A DNA stretch of 64,000 nucleotides. Source: Asterias amurensis (Eukaryota; Echinodermata; Asteroidea; Forcipulatida; Asteriidae). Position 1 is the first letter of the stretch; every line of letters begins with the position of its first letter. The notes beneath the pieces are model-generated. The model made no database searches. It was not told the DNA's origin and saw nothing but the letters and a program-made list of their open reading frames with translations. The stretch lies in the NCBI RefSeq assembly GCF_032118995.1, contig NC_092668.1, positions 5,187,501 through 5,251,500 of the forward strand, in the 5' to 3' direction. The translations under genes and the position numbers were made by a program. Positions 56,190 to 64,000 of the stretch are shown piece after piece.

Positions 56190-56780
56190 GGGCAACTCGT
56201 GCACTTGCAAACTTGAATACTTGCGAATTCGTACATCACCTTCTTCATAATGAAACTCATACGCTTGCAAACCCGCACAGTATACACTTTGGAGCTTGAA
56301 CACTTGTTGACTCGAACGCAAACTCATATGCAAACTCGTTTGCAAAAACGTGCGCTTGCAAAAACGTGCGCTTGCAAAAACGTGCGCTTGCAAAAACGTG
56401 CACTTGCAAAAACGTGCACTTGCAAAAACGCGCACTTGCAAACTCGTGCACTTGCAAACTCGTGCACTTGCAAAAGTGCACGTTTTTGCAAACTCGTGCA
56501 CTTGCAAACTCGTGCACTGGAAACTCGTGCACTGGAAACTCGTGCACTGGCAAACTCGTGCACTGGCAAACTCGTGCACTTGCAGGGAAAACTCGTGCAC
56601 TGGAGAGAAAAAAAAAAAAAAAAAGTGTGTAGGGGGTGGCAGATTAGTGTCGTCGGATGGTCAACTCGCGTCTGCAAATCCGACACTTGCAAATTTGTTG
56701 CTATCGAACACATACAAACTCGTGCACTTAAACTCGTACACTTGCAAACACCATGCCACTTGCAAACTCGTAAACTTACG
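56190..56780 (+). repeat. 16-bp tandem array
   Basis: The unit is AACTCGTGCACTTGCA, with a variant block AAAACGTGCGCTTGCA (56335-56430) and a GTGCACTGGAAACTC variant (56515-56600). More than 25 units, interrupted by an A17 run at about 56608. Long open frames on both strands reflect the repeat, not genes. Confidence 0.9.
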
Positions 56781-59916: not shown

Positions 59917-61149
59917 TCAAGACACCAGCCATCTCTTCACATCCAACTTTTCATTAAAGCATGAGAACAGGTCACTGGTGTTCACACTAGGGTCATTACA
60001 CTCCATGGTGGAGTTAGACAACCAGGGGTTAGCCTGTTTCTCATTCTTAGCCGTCGAAATTGAGAACTGGTGAACCATTTGGGAAAGTTCTTCAACACAG
60101 TTCTTGTTATCTTCTATCCCAGACTTCAACCAGAGCTTTTCAGACGATTTAGCGTCTGTCTTTTCTGTCAGTAGCCAATCTGAGTACTTTTCAGTGGATA
60201 CCTGGGACCCTTCCTTCTCACACACTAACCAATCAGAAAGCCCCTCCGAGCGTTCTTTCAAATAGACCGACAATGGCGAGTCGTAATTGGTCAGTAAGAA
60301 TGAGGCCGACTTCTGATTGGACTGTGTGATCCAATCAGAGGGCTCGTCTGATCGTGATTCAAGGTACGCGTTCGATGTTTGTGTGGGGCTTCTGTCAGAA
60401 ATTGTCTCACTACAAGCGAGCCATTTTGACGATGCAGGGGTTGAGATTGCATAGGTTTTCGCTTCAAGGCACCTTGGGGACTCACTTTTCTTATGAACCA
60501 ACCAATCAGATACATTCTCAGATCTCTGTTCGAAAAAGCTTTCCAGAGGAGACACCAGCGTGGTTGTTGGATGCTGTTGCTCTTGCAATAACCAATCAGA
60601 TGGCTCGTTAGAAAGATGCCCAAAATAGTTTTCAATGCTATTGGCTACCGAGAACCCACTTTCATCTTTTGATTCCTTGACAAGCCAATCGGAGGTATCG
60701 GATAGAAAGCCATGGATGGGGGATGGCATTTCATTGGTTGTTGGAATGGTCTTTAAATTACAAGCAAGCCAATCAGATGTCTGATCTAAACACCTGTTGC
60801 TACTACTATTCTTAATCAACCAAGAGTCGATTTCTGGTGATTTTTCAGAAGGGCTTTGATCTTCTTTTGATTTCTCACATGTCCCCCTGTTTGAAACTAA
60901 CCATGGAGAATTTTCTCCACCATCACTCTGACAACAATTCGTATCAAACAAACACTCAGAAAAATCTCTGCAAGGTTCATTTGCACGACAAACCTTCTCA
61001 ACGTTAGGGAGAGGTGTGTTATCCACAACATCTTCTTCTGATCTTGCAAGCCACTTGCTAGAGTTGAAGGAACTTGTCTTAGGGGCTGGCTTCGGCGGAG
61101 CGTTGTCTTTGATGCACAGGAGCTCCGCCAGGTTTTCTATTTCGTAAAA
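59917..61149 (-). CDS. NCOA4: NCOA4 terminal coding exon
   Basis: Acceptor CATTGTTCAG before TTT-TAC-GAA. 410 codons plus TGA at 59919-59917. Holds the Cys cluster, 14 W-L motifs, four of them in the composite pattern [LR]-S-x3-S-D-W-[LI], and the conserved C-terminus. Confidence 0.9.
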   Translation of the reverse strand, partial: FYEIENLAELLCIKDNAPPKPAPKTSSFNSSKWLARSEEDVVDNTPLPNVEKVCRANEPCRDFSECLFDTNCCQSDGGENSPWLVSNRGTCEKSKEDQSPSEKSPEIDSWLIKNSSSNRCLDQTSDWLACNLKTIPTTNEMPSPIHGFLSDTSDWLVKESKDESGFSVANSIENYFGHLSNEPSDWLLQEQQHPTTTLVSPLESFFEQRSENVSDWLVHKKSESPRCLEAKTYAISTPASSKWLACSETISDRSPTQTSNAYLESRSDEPSDWITQSNQKSASFLLTNYDSPLSVYLKERSEGLSDWLVCEKEGSQVSTEKYSDWLLTEKTDAKSSEKLWLKSGIEDNKNCVEELSQMVHQFSISTAKNEKQANPWLSNSTMECNDPSVNTSDLFSCFNEKLDVKRWLVS

Positions 61150-63877
61150 CTGAACAATGCAGAAAGAAAAAAAAATTGATACAAAAAATATGACTAAAAA
61201 TCAAATTATAAATTATAAATTTTAATATAAATTCTGGTCTGGTCAAAATAATAAGCTACACGCCATGCAGTTTTGTGGATTCTCCCACTAAGCATGGGCG
61301 ACTGATGAAATTCACTACTCAACTAGTCATGCCTCAAGTAATTGGGACTTCGAAAATAGTCACAACTAAGATGCATTGCCGCATATGGTTTGCCCCAGGC
61401 GTTTTAGTTAAACTTGAGCTGGCAGGATTTAAGGATTGTGTCACTGACGTCTGATTGTGTTTCCTAAATGAAGTTTTCGTGAATAGTTGTGAGCAACACA
61501 ATTGGTTCACCAAGCAGAAAGTCGCGACTAATTTGGTATTAGTCGTGGTGGCGCGATTAACTGAGAAGTTGAATATCGGTAGTAACATAATCTAAGGAAT
61601 GAATAGTCACGACTTTGACACTAGCCCAGGCTTAATCATCCCCCCCAAAAAAAAAAAAAAAAAAAAATTGTAATTAACAAACCTGTGGGCCTTGCTTGGC
61701 AGCAGTGCAGGCACAGGTTGGTTTAGGGCAGGAGAGTCTGTCATCCTCCTCAGCTTCATTTATGTCTTCATCTTCATCTACTTCTTCATCTACTCCCTCA
61801 TCTTCCATCCTCTGCTCACTACGGACTAGCCAAGACTGGATGTCGTCGGGCACCTCACTGTTTAATTATAAAAACGTTCCAATTATATTGGATTTTCTAA
61901 ATGAGCGATGGTTAGTTTTTTAATCTTATCAAGATGTTGTTGTGCTCTTTTTAATGTTTTTCTTTTTGTGTGTGCTCTTTTTAATTGGATGCGTTGCCTT
62001 GGATCGAGCGGGTTGGTCTTAGGCAGGCTTTTGAGACCAGTTTGTAATGGAATGCATTGCGGTTTGCGGTTGGATGGATGGTTTGGGAGTGGATGATGGT
62101 GGTACGTAACTTGTATTGAATGGGCTTAGAGTAAGGTCGCCAATGTAGTGACTGCAGCAAAGGGGTGGAATCATGTCTACGAAGTACTTGGTAGATTAGG
62201 GGAGCTGCCCAGTTCTGTAGGCTCTGGAGTCTTTTAAGGTGACTTGCTGGGACGGACGTAAGAAGCCCATTACAATTTACAATGGTCTAACCTAGACAAA
62301 ATAAGACATCTAAGCGCATGATGGCAGGTGGTTTGATCAATTAACTAACCGAATATTCAGTCCTTCATATACAAACATTTTTTGTTCTCTCTTTATCCCC
62401 TATGTGGAACAATCAATCGTTGTGGTACCTGCTCCCATCACATAGAATTTTAACTGCCCCTAGCTCGGTCATCTATATGTACTGTATGGTAAGACTTCCG
62501 CTCTAGCATTACAAAGGTCATGAGTTCGAACCCACCTGACTGATGTGCCTGTGTATTTTTTTTCTTCACAGAATCTTCACAGCACTCAGGAAAGTACAGA
62601 GTACACATAAATATCAGTGTAAGGGTAAAATTATAAACTTATAAATAGCAAACATTAAAGGAACACGTTGCCTTGGATCGGACAAGTTGGTCTATAAAAA
62701 GTGTTTGAAACCGTTTGTTATGAAATGCATATATGGTTAGAATTATGTTTTAAAAGTAGAATATAATGATCCACACAAGTATCACTCAAAATTGCACGGT
62801 TTTCCTTTTACGTCGCGAACTAACACGGTCGGCCATAATGGCCGAACGTGTTAGTCGACGAGGTAAAAAGAAAACCACGCTATTTCGAGGCATATTTGTG
62901 TAGATCATTATATTCTACTTTTACAACATCTTTCTACCCATATGCACTTTATAACAAACGGTTACAGAACGCTTTTCAAAGACCAACTCGACCGATCCAA
63001 GGCAACGTGTTCCTTTAAAGTTAATTGATTCTATTTACAGGTGTGTAAACAATAAACCTACACTGCTGCAGGTCCCACTCTGTGCAATTAATTTAGTTAC
63101 CTACGTAAAGCCACTGAACCCTGTACAATGGTAACACCTTCTAAGCAATTAATCTCTGATCAAATAACCAACTTAAAAAATAAAAATATGATAACCACGT
63201 ACCTGAAGTAAGCAATCTCCTGGAGATCTTCACTTCGATCATTCCCACAATCAGCGAGCCAATCCGTCCAGGGTGATTTCATCAATTCTTCCATATGCTC
63301 AAAGGTTGGCGCAGAGTTTGTAATGGGCCAAGATGCGGTTTCGTTCACCTCTTGTCGAACGCCATCAAGGATCTCTATATCGGCTTCTGATTGGTCGTCA
63401 TCGACAATTTCAAAGTCATCTTTGGTGAAAAAAAGGGCAGCGATGTTTTACAGCAATTTAATTTTAAAATTGTTCAGTGATTTTAAAAACAAGAAATGCA
63501 TAAAAAGACAAGGCAAGTCCTTTTGACTGGCACCCCTAAACAAATATGTTGACTTATAATAGGGAGACAGCCGACATACGTAGGGCTAGGTATCTCAGTT
63601 GGTAGTCAGTACGTTAATATGGAGGTCGTTGGTTCAAGTTCCATTTCTGTAAATTTTTCTTTATTCAAACCTGATTTTACCAACAAAGTTTAAATTGTGG
63701 ATACTGGAGAATCGTAATATTATTCTTTATCCCTGATGCAAATTATATTAAAAGATTTAGACAACTTGGAGACTTTTGATTAAGCTTTATAGTACCTTCA
63801 CTCTGATTGGATGAGAATGGTGTGGTCTTCCTTATGAGCCAATCAGAAGGGTTGTAAGACAGCTCCAAGGCTGGATT
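59917..63877 (-). CDS. NCOA4: NCOA4 (ferritinophagy cargo receptor), 3' part of the gene
   Basis: NCOA4 links ferritin heavy chain to autophagosomes so that stored iron is released in lysosomes, and is itself degraded when iron is high (vertebrate knowledge). Four exons are visible (minus): 63796-63877, 63203-63419, 61683-61857, 59917-61149. All junctions are GT-AG and in phase, giving 568 codons plus TGA. Recognition rests on three blocks. First, EIENLAELLC resembles human EIENLGNLKC. Second, VEKVCRANEPC..FSEC.FDTNC resembles human VEEVCRANEPC..FAEC.CDENC. Third, the C-terminus DLFSCFNEKLDVKRWL resembles human DLFACMQLKVDKEKWL. About 17 W-L type motifs (S-D-W-L, S-K-W-L, P-W-L) are spread through it, as in vertebrate NCOA4 but expanded. 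An acidic stretch (about 61730-61790) precedes CPKPTCACT. The N-terminal coiled-coil (ARA70) exons lie beyond the window edge. Confidence 0.9.
61150..61682 (-). other. NCOA4 intron
   Basis: Contains an A-run (61647-61667). The minus frame at 61334-61588 is intronic and without family resemblance. Confidence 0.6.
61683..61857 (-). CDS. NCOA4: NCOA4 internal exon (acidic, CxC)
   Basis: Acceptor ATTAAACAG, donor CCACAG/GTTTGTT. Encodes PDDIQSWLVRSEQ, a Glu/Asp-rich run and CPKPTCACTAAKQGPQ. Phase 2 in, phase 0 out. Confidence 0.85.
61985..62085. repeat. Family B MITE, degenerate left-arm fragment
   Basis: GCGTTGCCTTGGATCGAGCG then GGTTGGTCTTAGGCAGGCTTTTGA follows the B left arm with many substitutions. 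In an NCOA4 intron. Confidence 0.55.
62455..62640 (+). mobile_element. tRNA-derived SINE in an NCOA4 intron
   Basis: A degenerate A box region (TAGCTCGGTCATC), the B box GAGTTCGAACCCACC, then CTGTGTATTTTTTTTC, ACTCAGGAAAGTACAGAGTA and ATATCAGTGTAAGGGTAAAA. Same family as 31897-32050. Confidence 0.7.
62656..63019. mobile_element. Family B hairpin MITE (short-loop copy)
   Basis: AAAGGAACACGTTGCCTTGG opens and its complement closes. The centre has collapsed to CGGTCGGCCATAATGGCCGA, lacking the GGGAGTC stem of other copies. In an NCOA4 intron. Confidence 0.9.
63203..63419 (-). CDS. NCOA4: NCOA4 internal exon
   Basis: Acceptor TTCACCAAAG, donor CTTCAG/GTACGTG. Encodes DFEIVDDDQSEADIEILDG and SPWTDWLADCGNDRSEDL. 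Phase 1 in, phase 2 out. Confidence 0.85.
63575..63680 (+). mobile_element. tRNA-derived SINE fragment in an NCOA4 intron
   Basis: A-box-like GTATCTCAGTTGGTAGTCAG, then GTCGTTGGTTCAAGTTCC (B box), followed by TTCTGTAAATTTTTCTTTAT. Too diverged in its stems to be a working tRNA gene. Confidence 0.55.
63796..63877 (-). CDS. NCOA4: NCOA4 internal exon (most upstream visible)
   Basis: Acceptor TTTCCTCATCAG, donor AGTGAAG/GTACTAT. Encodes NPALELSYNPSDWLIRKTTP and ends in phase 1. The preceding exon is outside the window. Confidence 0.8.
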
Positions 63878-64000
63878 CTGATGAGGAAAAACAAATAATA
63901 CAATAACTTCATAAACACAGATCATCACTAAACAAATACAACAAATCAATTGCCCCCAAATTCCTCCTGTAATTTCCACTGTTTTTCCCAGAGTCTAAAT

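What the first reader, a model, noticed from the sequence alone, without database searches (positions are those of the whole stretch)
59917..63877. NCOA4 with an expanded S-D-W-L motif array
The visible 568 residues contain about 17 W-L motifs. Four in the last exon share a longer unit: a hydrophobic/aromatic start, then [LR]-S-[END]-x2-S-D-W-[LI]. In human NCOA4 ferritin binding depends on an Ile and a Trp eight residues apart in a comparable V-I-K-N-S-P-L-S-E-W segment (recalled: I489, W497). If several repeats here bind ferritin heavy chain, the receptor would be multivalent by design, which matters for ferritin condensation.
Basis: partly seen in the sequence, partly recalled or inferred. 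Interest (0 to 1): 0.75.

Follow-up and report, generated by a model that had tools for sequence, protein, structure and literature searches.

The report
Sea star ferritin receptor with repeats
A sea star's version of NCOA4, the protein that hands the iron store ferritin over for recycling, carries an old, conserved run of repeated tryptophan docking units, so it may grip ferritin at several points at once, though no binding has been shown.

Summary
Four minus-strand exons (59917-63877) give 568 residues with 17 W-L/W-I motifs, and four units share [LR]-S-[END]-x2-S-D-W-[LI] far beyond chance. It is a single-copy NCOA4, 737 aa with exons beyond the window.

W-L motifs as such are barely expanded: 18 against a median of 13 in 55 mostly mammalian vertebrate-type rows, at similar density. 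A longer 'class III' unit is: 3-5 in five asteroid-type rows, 1 in a brittle star, 0 in seven other invertebrate-type and the 55 vertebrate-type rows.

It is present upstream of the cysteines (W81); equivalent units of Patiria, Acanthaster and a nemertean match the vertebrate ferritin site well. By alignment, unit B lies opposite the mouse ferritin site, though placement is unstable. Several human-like units may be ancestral.

Sea star ferritins keep much of the cleft, with K for R23 in two of three. Ferritin binding is untested. By-product: an acidic LIR shared in place by 10 of 13 invertebrate-type rows, absent from 55 vertebrate-type rows.

The parts
63796..63877 (-). NCOA4 exon (first one inside the window; three more 5' exons lie beyond the window end)
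   Evidence: AG acceptor at 63878, GT donor at 63795, phase 0 to 1; upstream exons at G000:C21:5255996-5255880, 5255430-5255195 and 5254838-5254676, the last ending 9 bases earlier if the A. rubens-like donor is used
63203..63419 (-). NCOA4 exon holding the acidic LIR, the class I unit (W81) and the start of the class II unit (W109)
   Evidence: Splice sites and phase
61683..61857 (-). NCOA4 exon: end of the class II unit (W109) and an acidic stretch
   Evidence: Splice sites and phase
59917..61149 (-). Last NCOA4 exon: cysteine cluster and W-L array, stop codon at 59917-59919
   Evidence: Open frame of 410 aa; single place found in the genome
63403..63414 (-). Canonical LIR core F-E-I-V (visible residues 30-33) in the setting EDDFEIVDDD
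   Evidence: coordinates; same alignment place in sea stars, brittle star, nemertean and bivalves
63253..63309 (-). Class I unit, visible W81: M at -11, L at -8, S-5, P-4, W0, L+1, the layout of the human ferritin site
   Evidence: AF2 helix pair in the A. rubens ortholog
61824..63219 (-). Class II unit, visible residues 95-111 (W109), split by an intron: YF..V.....W
   Evidence: helix-half fit not significant here (p=0.094 over any shift)
60925..61002 (-). Cysteine cluster VEKVCRANEPCRDFSECLFDTNCCQS; cysteines equivalent to human 404, 410, 416 and 422 all present
   Evidence: PDB 9l93 match, E=2e-5; human ligands from PMC10831263 passages
60679..60729 (-). Unit A (W313), four residues shorter than the aligned unit in P0002, Patiria and Acanthaster
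   Evidence: alignment
60586..60642 (-). Unit B (W344), SIENYFGHLSNEPSDWLL, class II/III intermediate; opposite the mouse ferritin site in two of three alignments
60496..60552 (-). Unit C (W374), SPLESFFEQRSENVSDWLV, class III
   Evidence: AF2 helix pair at low confidence
60415..60465 (-). Unit W401, TYAISTPASSKWLA: I at -8. Aligned units of P0002 and Acanthaster have F-11 and I-8; that of Patiria does not
60325..60381 (-). Unit D (W431), SNAYLESRSDEPSDWIT, class III without the -14 hydrophobic
60223..60279 (-). Unit E (W465), SPLSVYLKERSEGLSDWLV, class III
   Evidence: AF2 helix at low confidence

Best explanation
This is the sea star orthologue of NCOA4, the ferritinophagy receptor. It has an N-terminal ARA70 coiled coil, then a long, mostly disordered tail. 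Along the tail come an acidic LIR that would bind ATG8-family proteins, one human-type ferritin-docking unit (W81), an iron-sulfur/HERC2 cysteine cluster, and an array of related helix-turn-W-L units. Each unit would fold into a short helix plus a half-turn ending in W-L when it meets a partner. Most likely (inferred, not shown) W81, by geometry, and unit B, by position, are the main ferritin contacts, and units C-E are weaker contacts with the same cleft on ferritin. One NCOA4 chain could then hold several of the 24 subunits, or several cages, and the coiled coil multiplies this. Shown here: gene structure, homology, repeat significance, conservation of the units, and a partly conserved ferritin cleft in the same genome. 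Inferred: the partner, the affinity and the effect on condensation. Having several human-like units may be ancestral, with the vertebrate-type single site derived and asteroids multiplying another subtype.
For: NCOA4 identity: 91% identical to A. rubens 'NCOA4-like', cysteine cluster match to human NCOA4 9l93, ARA70 in the A. rubens protein, its N-terminal part matched by upstream exons. Array significance. Units B-E keep 47/68, 34/68, 34/68 and 23/68 identical residues in P0002, Patiria, Acanthaster and Amphiura, against 124/251, 76/251, 77/251 and 37/251 in the rest of the downstream tail. Vertebrate-site profile: Patiria W254 0 of 90,800 null windows, Lineus W335 4e-5 and W528 1e-4, Acanthaster W250 1e-4, P0069 W192 1e-4, P0065 W562 4e-4. 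The helix half of a broader profile fits W81 in register (p=0.003) and W344 one residue closer (p=0.012 over any shift). Mouse ferritin site W461 lies opposite unit B in two of three alignments. Three ferritins in the same genome keep A19, N22, L27 and V111, with K or R at 23. AF2 puts helix pairs at W250 and W533 of A. rubens and a similar split pair at the known mouse site W461.
Against: No ferritin contact was tested. Units C-E lack a hydrophobic at -8 or -7, the equivalent of I489. Strict vertebrate-profile p-values in this protein are weak: 0.003, 0.014, 0.044, 0.058, 0.086 and 0.12 for the six best of 21 windows. Other misses: the best window of P0005 has p=0.072, of Mytilus P0067 0.016, of Amphiura 0.004. 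Ferritin contacts R80 and F82 are T or L and V here, R23 is K in two of three, and single ferritins change Y30 (S) or K87 (V); R23K is not among the human mutants in the table I read. AF2 confidence in the array is nearly all below 50, no helix is drawn at units B or D, and the mouse control is no more confident and draws helices at other W-L places too. S-5 and L-3, which matter in the human alanine scan, are not kept in units B-D; E keeps L-3. Between A. rubens and this protein, cores and rest differ little (64/68 against 223/251), and part of the core excess is W-L itself.
Confidence: 0.45

Rival explanations
1. The array units dock a different partner than ferritin, for example an adaptor such as TAX1BP1, HERC2 or NCOA4 itself; only the class I unit W81 (and perhaps unit B) binds ferritin.
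For: Units C-E lack the I489 equivalent, while the vertebrate-site profile is strongest in the upstream unit of Patiria, Acanthaster and Lineus. Vertebrate-type NCOA4 has 10-14 W-L motifs against one known ferritin site, so W-L alone does not mean ferritin.
Against: Units share the -11 aromatic to W0 spacing with the human ferritin site, and some share the two-part layout in low-confidence models. No alternative partner was identified by any search.
Confidence: 0.25
2. The array is a set of hydrophobic stickers in a disordered tail that drive NCOA4 condensation without a defined docking register.
For: The tail is predicted mostly disordered. NCOA4 and ferritin form condensates through NCOA4 self-interaction plus ferritin binding (PMC9452830 passages).
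Against: Recurring residues at -11, -10, -6, -1 and W0 in five asteroid-type sequences, and a flank similarity that shuffling destroys, are more than stickers need.
Confidence: 0.2
3. The array units are ATG8-binding LIRs, giving avid capture by the autophagosome.
For: The human ferritin site F486-I489 also acts as a LIR for GATE16, and avidity of two motifs matters (PMC12872393, parts 1-2 of 8 and passages). Unit B holds F-G-H-L.
Against: None of the 17 W-L motifs after the ARA70 region has L, I or V at W+3, and units C, D and E hold no [WFY]xx[LIV]. A far better LIR lies elsewhere (F30).
Confidence: 0.05
4. The repeats are drift in a fast-evolving tail without function.
For: W-L motifs are common across the family; the tail aligns poorly and unstably outside asteroids.
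Against: Unit cores are more conserved than the rest of the tail in Patiria, Acanthaster and P0002, although the units share only 47-61% of DNA bases with each other and so are old.
Confidence: 0.05

Closest known systems
Human/mouse NCOA4 ferritin-binding segment 484-499 (PDB 8QU9; PMC11076521; PMC4592949)
   Same: Aromatic or hydrophobic at -11, W at 0, L at +1; W81 also has hydrophobic -8, S-5 and P-4. Unit B lies opposite the mouse site in two of three alignments.
   Different: The known site is downstream of the cysteine cluster. Here the unit closest in geometry is upstream of it, and array units C-E lack the -8 hydrophobic; C and E carry a further hydrophobic at -14.
NCOA4 of other invertebrates (Amphiura filiformis P0063, Lineus longissimus P0064, P0065 named by gene only)
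   Same: Class I unit upstream of the cysteines, YF..[VI][SA].....W class II units, acidic LIR, ARA70 domain.
   Different: Class III units number 1 in Amphiura and 0 in the other two, against 3-5 in five asteroid-type sequences.
Multivalent ferritin-NCOA4 condensates (PMC9452830)
   Same: Multivalency is the proposed driver of ferritin condensation.
   Different: In the human model valency comes from NCOA4 homodimerisation plus binding to the ferritin particle; here further valency could come from several sites on one chain (inferred).
Two-LIR avidity of NCOA4 for GATE16 (PMC12872393)
   Same: Several weak linear motifs on one chain acting together.
   Different: The human LIR-like motifs are 413-417 and 485-489; the invertebrate-type LIR is a canonical acidic one at another place.

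Membership tests
NCOA4 | N-terminal ARA70 coiled-coil domain (PF12489) | tested here: met
   Met in the 91%-identical A. rubens protein (E=8e-7). The window gene's own N-terminal exons match that protein at 91-96% within the aligned pieces. The PF12489 genome search did not complete.
NCOA4 | Iron-sulfur/HERC2 cysteine cluster | tested here: met
   Four of four human ligand cysteines aligned (A. rubens; ligands from PMC10831263). The non-ligand C418 is F here.
NCOA4 | Ferritin-binding segment with I489/W497 geometry | tested here: inconclusive
   W81 has the geometry (L-8, P-4) but a strict-profile p of only 0.044; the aligned units of Patiria, Acanthaster and Lineus score 1e-4 or better.
NCOA4 | Binds ferritin heavy chain and delivers it to lysosomes | not testable with these tools
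   No complex modelling or experiment available.
Human-type ferritin-binding unit (claim for array units B-E) | Hydrophobic residue eight before W | tested here: not met
   Position -8 is H, Q, S and E in W344, W374, W431 and W465. Unit B has L at -7.
Human-type ferritin-binding unit (claim for array units B-E) | Aromatic 11 before W and L or I after W | tested here: met
   Y, F, Y and Y at -11; L, L, I and L at +1.
ATG8-binding LIR (claim for W-L motifs) | [WFY]xx[LIV] core | tested here: not met
   0 of 17 W-L motifs after the ARA70 region have L, I or V at W+3.
ATG8-binding LIR (claim for F30) | [WFY]xx[LIV] core with acidic neighbours | tested here: met
   EDDFEIVDDD; strict pattern in 10 of 13 invertebrate-type rows at the same alignment place. 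Binding not tested.

The most novel reading that the evidence does not exclude
The bilaterian ancestor's NCOA4 was polyvalent for ferritin, with human-like docking units on both sides of the iron-sulfur cluster plus a canonical LIR. Vertebrates pared it down to one site and lost the canonical LIR. Asteroids went the other way and amplified a class III unit, so that one receptor chain can bridge ferritin cages by itself.
Probability: 0.3. Interest if true: 0.7.

Novelty: new variant of a known kind. Interest (0 to 1): 0.52.

Why it matters
The human NCOA4-ferritin contact is known at one 16-residue site, and how many sites a receptor needs for condensation is open. A natural orthologue with several graded versions of the unit, a single-copy gene and a ferritin close to solved structures (8IQV series) makes valency directly testable. 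The acidic LIR shared by invertebrate-type NCOA4 would also give the receptor a plain route to ATG8 proteins, where the human protein uses two weak LIR-like motifs.

Tried and rejected
Tried: (1) Pfam scan of the last exon and of exon 63203-63420: only sub-threshold hits, RicinB_lectin_2 and XS, taken as chance. (2) The idea that R23K in sea star ferritin pairs with the array as compensation: not supported, since K is at this position in 99 of the 120 ferritin hits listed, among them a hemichordate, a brachiopod, a cnidarian and sharks. Those 120 are the best of 2,075 hits to a K23 query, so the share is biased towards K. (3) Recent tandem duplication: rejected for this species, since the four units share 24-31 of 51 bases and the exon has only short direct repeats; Patiria does carry two adjacent copies of unit A. 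(4) Array units as LIRs: rejected. (5) 'Expanded number of W-L motifs': rejected as such. (6) A 'longUnit' pattern was written one position off and gives zeros everywhere; I disregard that column. (7) The class patterns were written after looking at the sequences; the shuffles control for composition, not for that choice. The class I pattern alone is not significant in this protein (p=0.107), Patiria (0.266), Amphiura (0.078) or mouse (0.074). (9) Papers: ten searches of the held open-access library. No title listed concerns NCOA4 repeats or LIRs in invertebrates, but most listings show only a part of the hits, and subscription papers and preprints are not covered. Passages of PMC5538626 and PMC11216947 held nothing on an NCOA4 LIR.

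Rows dropped or biased: 'vertebrate-type' rows are P0007-P0062, mostly mammals with a few birds and two named fish; six are unnamed and taken as vertebrate by similarity. One of the 56 (407 aa) was left out of the 55. P0006 (338 aa, unnamed, fish-like) was left out of those counts; checked, it has no class II, class III or strict LIR match. In the profile, 2 of 27 distinct vertebrate site strings (two fish) were left out because they lack the -11/-8 residues; 53 of 56 rows gave a site. In one search, 14 sites (ten taken by position, four strings copied) made the broad profile, with the scored site left out.
Full report
What was checked. Four exons (63877-63796, 63419-63203, 61857-61683, 61149-59917) join with GT..AG introns in matching phases to 568 visible residues containing 19 W and 17 W[LI]. 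The genome that holds the window (unnamed, 491.5 Mb, 23 contigs) supplies three further 5' exons. The full protein is 737 residues if the donor that gives the A. rubens-like junction is used; a second in-frame donor would give 740. Full numbering is visible numbering plus 169. The last exon was found at one place in the genome. The species is a sea star close to Asterias rubens by protein identity (91%); its name was not established.

Identity. The best hits are 'NCOA4-like' of A. rubens, an unnamed P0002, and those of Patiria miniata and Acanthaster planci, then at a distance vertebrate NCOA4. The cysteine cluster matches human NCOA4 in PDB 9l93 at E=2e-5, and all four iron-sulfur ligands of the human protein (404, 410, 416, 422; PMC10831263 passages) are present. 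ARA70 is recognised in the A. rubens protein.

Is the array real? Seventeen W[LI] against a shuffle mean of 2.2, and eight SDW[LI] against a shuffle mean of 0.025. At DNA level they share only 24-31 of 51 bases, so the array is old. In A. rubens, P0002, Patiria and Acanthaster each of the four has an aligned counterpart, unit B of the last two lacking residues -14 to -12. Identity in the cores exceeds the rest of the downstream tail: 47/68 against 124/251 in P0002, 34/68 against 76/251 in Patiria, 34/68 against 77/251 in Acanthaster, 23/68 against 37/251 in Amphiura; in A. rubens the contrast is small, 64/68 against 223/251. Part of the excess is the W-L itself. Patiria carries two adjacent copies of unit A, while in this protein and A. 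rubens unit A is four residues shorter than in P0002, Patiria and Acanthaster.

What is and is not expanded. W[LI] counts are 18 in this protein, 17-20 in the three named sea stars, 13 in the brittle star Amphiura, 13 in the nemertean Lineus, 14 in Mytilus, 8 in P0069, and a median of 13 (range 10-14) in 55 vertebrate-type rows, mostly mammals; density is 2.4 here against a median of 2.0 per 100 residues. Hence W-L repetition is a family habit. The class III pattern, [YFI][FYLVI]-x2-[RQ]-S-x5-W, is found 3 times here (units C, D, E), 3 in A. rubens, 4 in P0002, 5 in Patiria, 4 in Acanthaster, 1 in Amphiura and 0 in the other seven invertebrate-type rows and the 55 vertebrate-type rows.

Comparison with the human ferritin site. 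In the cryo-EM structure F486, I489 and W497 fill three pockets, S492 caps the first helix and P493 bridges over R23 (PMC11076521, sections 6, 7 part 1 and 9). Alanine scanning names W497 first, then to a lesser extent I489, S492, L494 and L498 (PMC4592949 passages). Relative to W these residues lie at -11, -8, -5, -4 and -3, with L498 at +1. The array units keep an aromatic at -11 and W-[LI], but -8 is H, Q, S or E. The human layout is found upstream of the cysteines: Patiria FVHEILNSPLSDWLF, Acanthaster FINELLNSPLSDWLL, Amphiura HFNQVILSPFAEWLL, Lineus YFQMVKSAPLTAWLL, and here HMEELMKSPWTDWLA (W81). Under a profile of 25 vertebrate sites, null frequencies are 0 of 90,800 (Patiria), 1e-4 (Acanthaster), 4e-5 (Lineus), 0.004 (Amphiura) and 0.044 (here). 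Lineus (W528, 1e-4) and P0065 (W562, 4e-4) also have such a unit downstream of the cysteines. Misses: in this protein no window passes correction for 21 windows (best W374, 0.003); the best windows of P0005 and Mytilus P0067 reach only 0.072 and 0.016; P0067 and P0068 match neither the class I nor the class II pattern.

Class II. The helix half of a 14-site profile, slid one residue towards W, is the best fit with p of 0.03 or less over any shift in 11 of 73 windows scored from seven proteins: here W482 and W513 (visible 313 and 344), Patiria W526, Acanthaster W507 and W537, Amphiura W245, W279 and W424, Lineus W373, P0065 W367 and W496. Visually similar units that miss are W278 here (0.094), Patiria W282 (0.128), Acanthaster W278 (0.403), P0065 W526 (0.059) and P0005 W319 (0.117). 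Of the other array units, W543 and W600 (visible 374 and 431) fit best in register at 0.078 and 0.174 over any shift, and W634 (465) at 0.255.

Position. In the two 20-row alignments the mouse ferritin site W461 stands opposite A. rubens W503, which is unit B; unit C stands opposite mouse W502, W250 opposite W262 (whose helix is gone), and units A, D and E opposite no residue of mouse. In the 7-row alignment W461 stands opposite unit A. Alignment of such tails is unstable, but unit B is a fair candidate for the counterpart of the vertebrate site.

The partner. The same genome has three ferritin loci, spliced. The first keeps A19, N22, L27, Y30, K87 and V111, has K for R23 and E for D90, and T and V for R80 and F82. 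The second is like it but has S for Y30. The third keeps R23, Y30 and D90 but has L, V and V for R80, F82 and K87 (human numbering by recall). K23 occurs in 99 of 120 listed relatives, N22 and V111 in 120 of 120; these are the best 120 of 2,075 hits to a K23 query. Solved structures of a near-identical ferritin exist (8IQV and others); from recall these are Asterias forbesi ferritin. R23A abolishes binding in human ferritin; R23L gave no ITC signal, 86% immunoprecipitation and 33.7% colocalised puncta. K was not in that table, so compatibility of K23 is open.

Structure prediction. AF2 on the A. rubens protein with a 20-sequence alignment is confident only in the coiled coil. In the tail it draws helix pairs at W250 (236-243 and 247-250, ten-residue means 62 and 72) and W533 (518-526 and 530-533, means 41, 46 and 37), and helices at W278 and W624, but none at W503 (unit B) or W590 (unit D); in the array only a few residues reach pLDDT 50. 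The control on mouse NCOA4 draws a split pair at the known site W461 (451-454, then 458-460) at pLDDT about 40, and helices at several other W-L places too. This is weak support for a shared two-part layout and no evidence of binding.

A by-product of interest. The only canonical acidic LIR of the tail is EDDFEIVDDD (F30 visible, F199 full). The strict pattern [DE][DE][FWY]xx[LIV] occurs in this protein, A. rubens, Patiria, Acanthaster, Amphiura, Lineus, P0065, Potamilus and two mytilid-type rows, 10 of 13 invertebrate-type rows, at the same alignment place; it is missing in the partial P0002, in P0005 and in P0069. It is found in 0 of 55 vertebrate-type rows. One such motif per protein arises in 8-26% of shuffles of eight proteins, so the weight lies in the shared place. 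Human NCOA4 instead uses two LIR-like motifs, 413-417 and 485-489, the latter within the ferritin site (PMC12872393, parts 1-2 of 8 and passages).

Conclusion. The reading 'several copies of the I489/W497 motif' is wrong in detail: units C-E are a related but different unit, unit B is shifted by one residue, and the unit with the human geometry sits elsewhere in the protein. A receptor with several ferritin-docking units remains the best explanation (0.45), untested. The broader and more novel reading is that polyvalency is ancestral and the single vertebrate-type site derived; the mammal-heavy sample and the few invertebrate phyla at hand limit it.

Noticed in passing
window 63403-63414 (minus strand): Canonical acidic LIR EDDFEIVDDD at a place shared by 10 of 13 invertebrate-type NCOA4 rows and absent from 55 vertebrate-type rows.
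   Followed up: partly
window 62651-63022: Imperfect palindrome in an NCOA4 intron, arms of 55, 27 and 106 nt at 83-89%, looking like a MITE-type element; a related half copy lies at 61980-62057 (71%).
   Followed up: no
window 56340-56584: Minisatellite with a 16-base unit TTGCAAAAACGTGCAC, about 15 copies.
   Followed up: no
window 60229-63847: The 9-mer CCAATCAGA occurs nine times in the window (0.7 expected, largest shuffle 5), all inside NCOA4 exons; six encode S-D-W but three lie on the other strand. Unexplained.
   Followed up: partly
L001, L002 (G000:C22) and L003 (G000:C12): Three ferritin genes: two neighbours with K at the R23 position (one also with S for Y30) and one with R23 and a cysteine-rich C-terminal tail.
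   Followed up: partly
P0007 (Brienomyrus) and a second row with a similar string: Two vertebrate-type site strings, KHGASPMMSSLSNWVS (P0007) and KTSMATSMSSLSNWMS, lack the -11 and -8 hydrophobics of the ferritin site, so these fish may bind ferritin differently.
   Followed up: no
P0066 (Potamilus streckersoni): NCOA4-type protein listed with ARA70 but without the CxANExC cysteine motif; may be a gene-model error or a real loss of iron sensing.
   Followed up: no
P0003 (Patiria miniata) residues 450-500: Two adjacent, closely similar copies of unit A (SPFDNFLNQQSKNTADWL and SPIDNFLKQQSQKIRDWL), suggesting the array still grows by duplication.
   Followed up: partly
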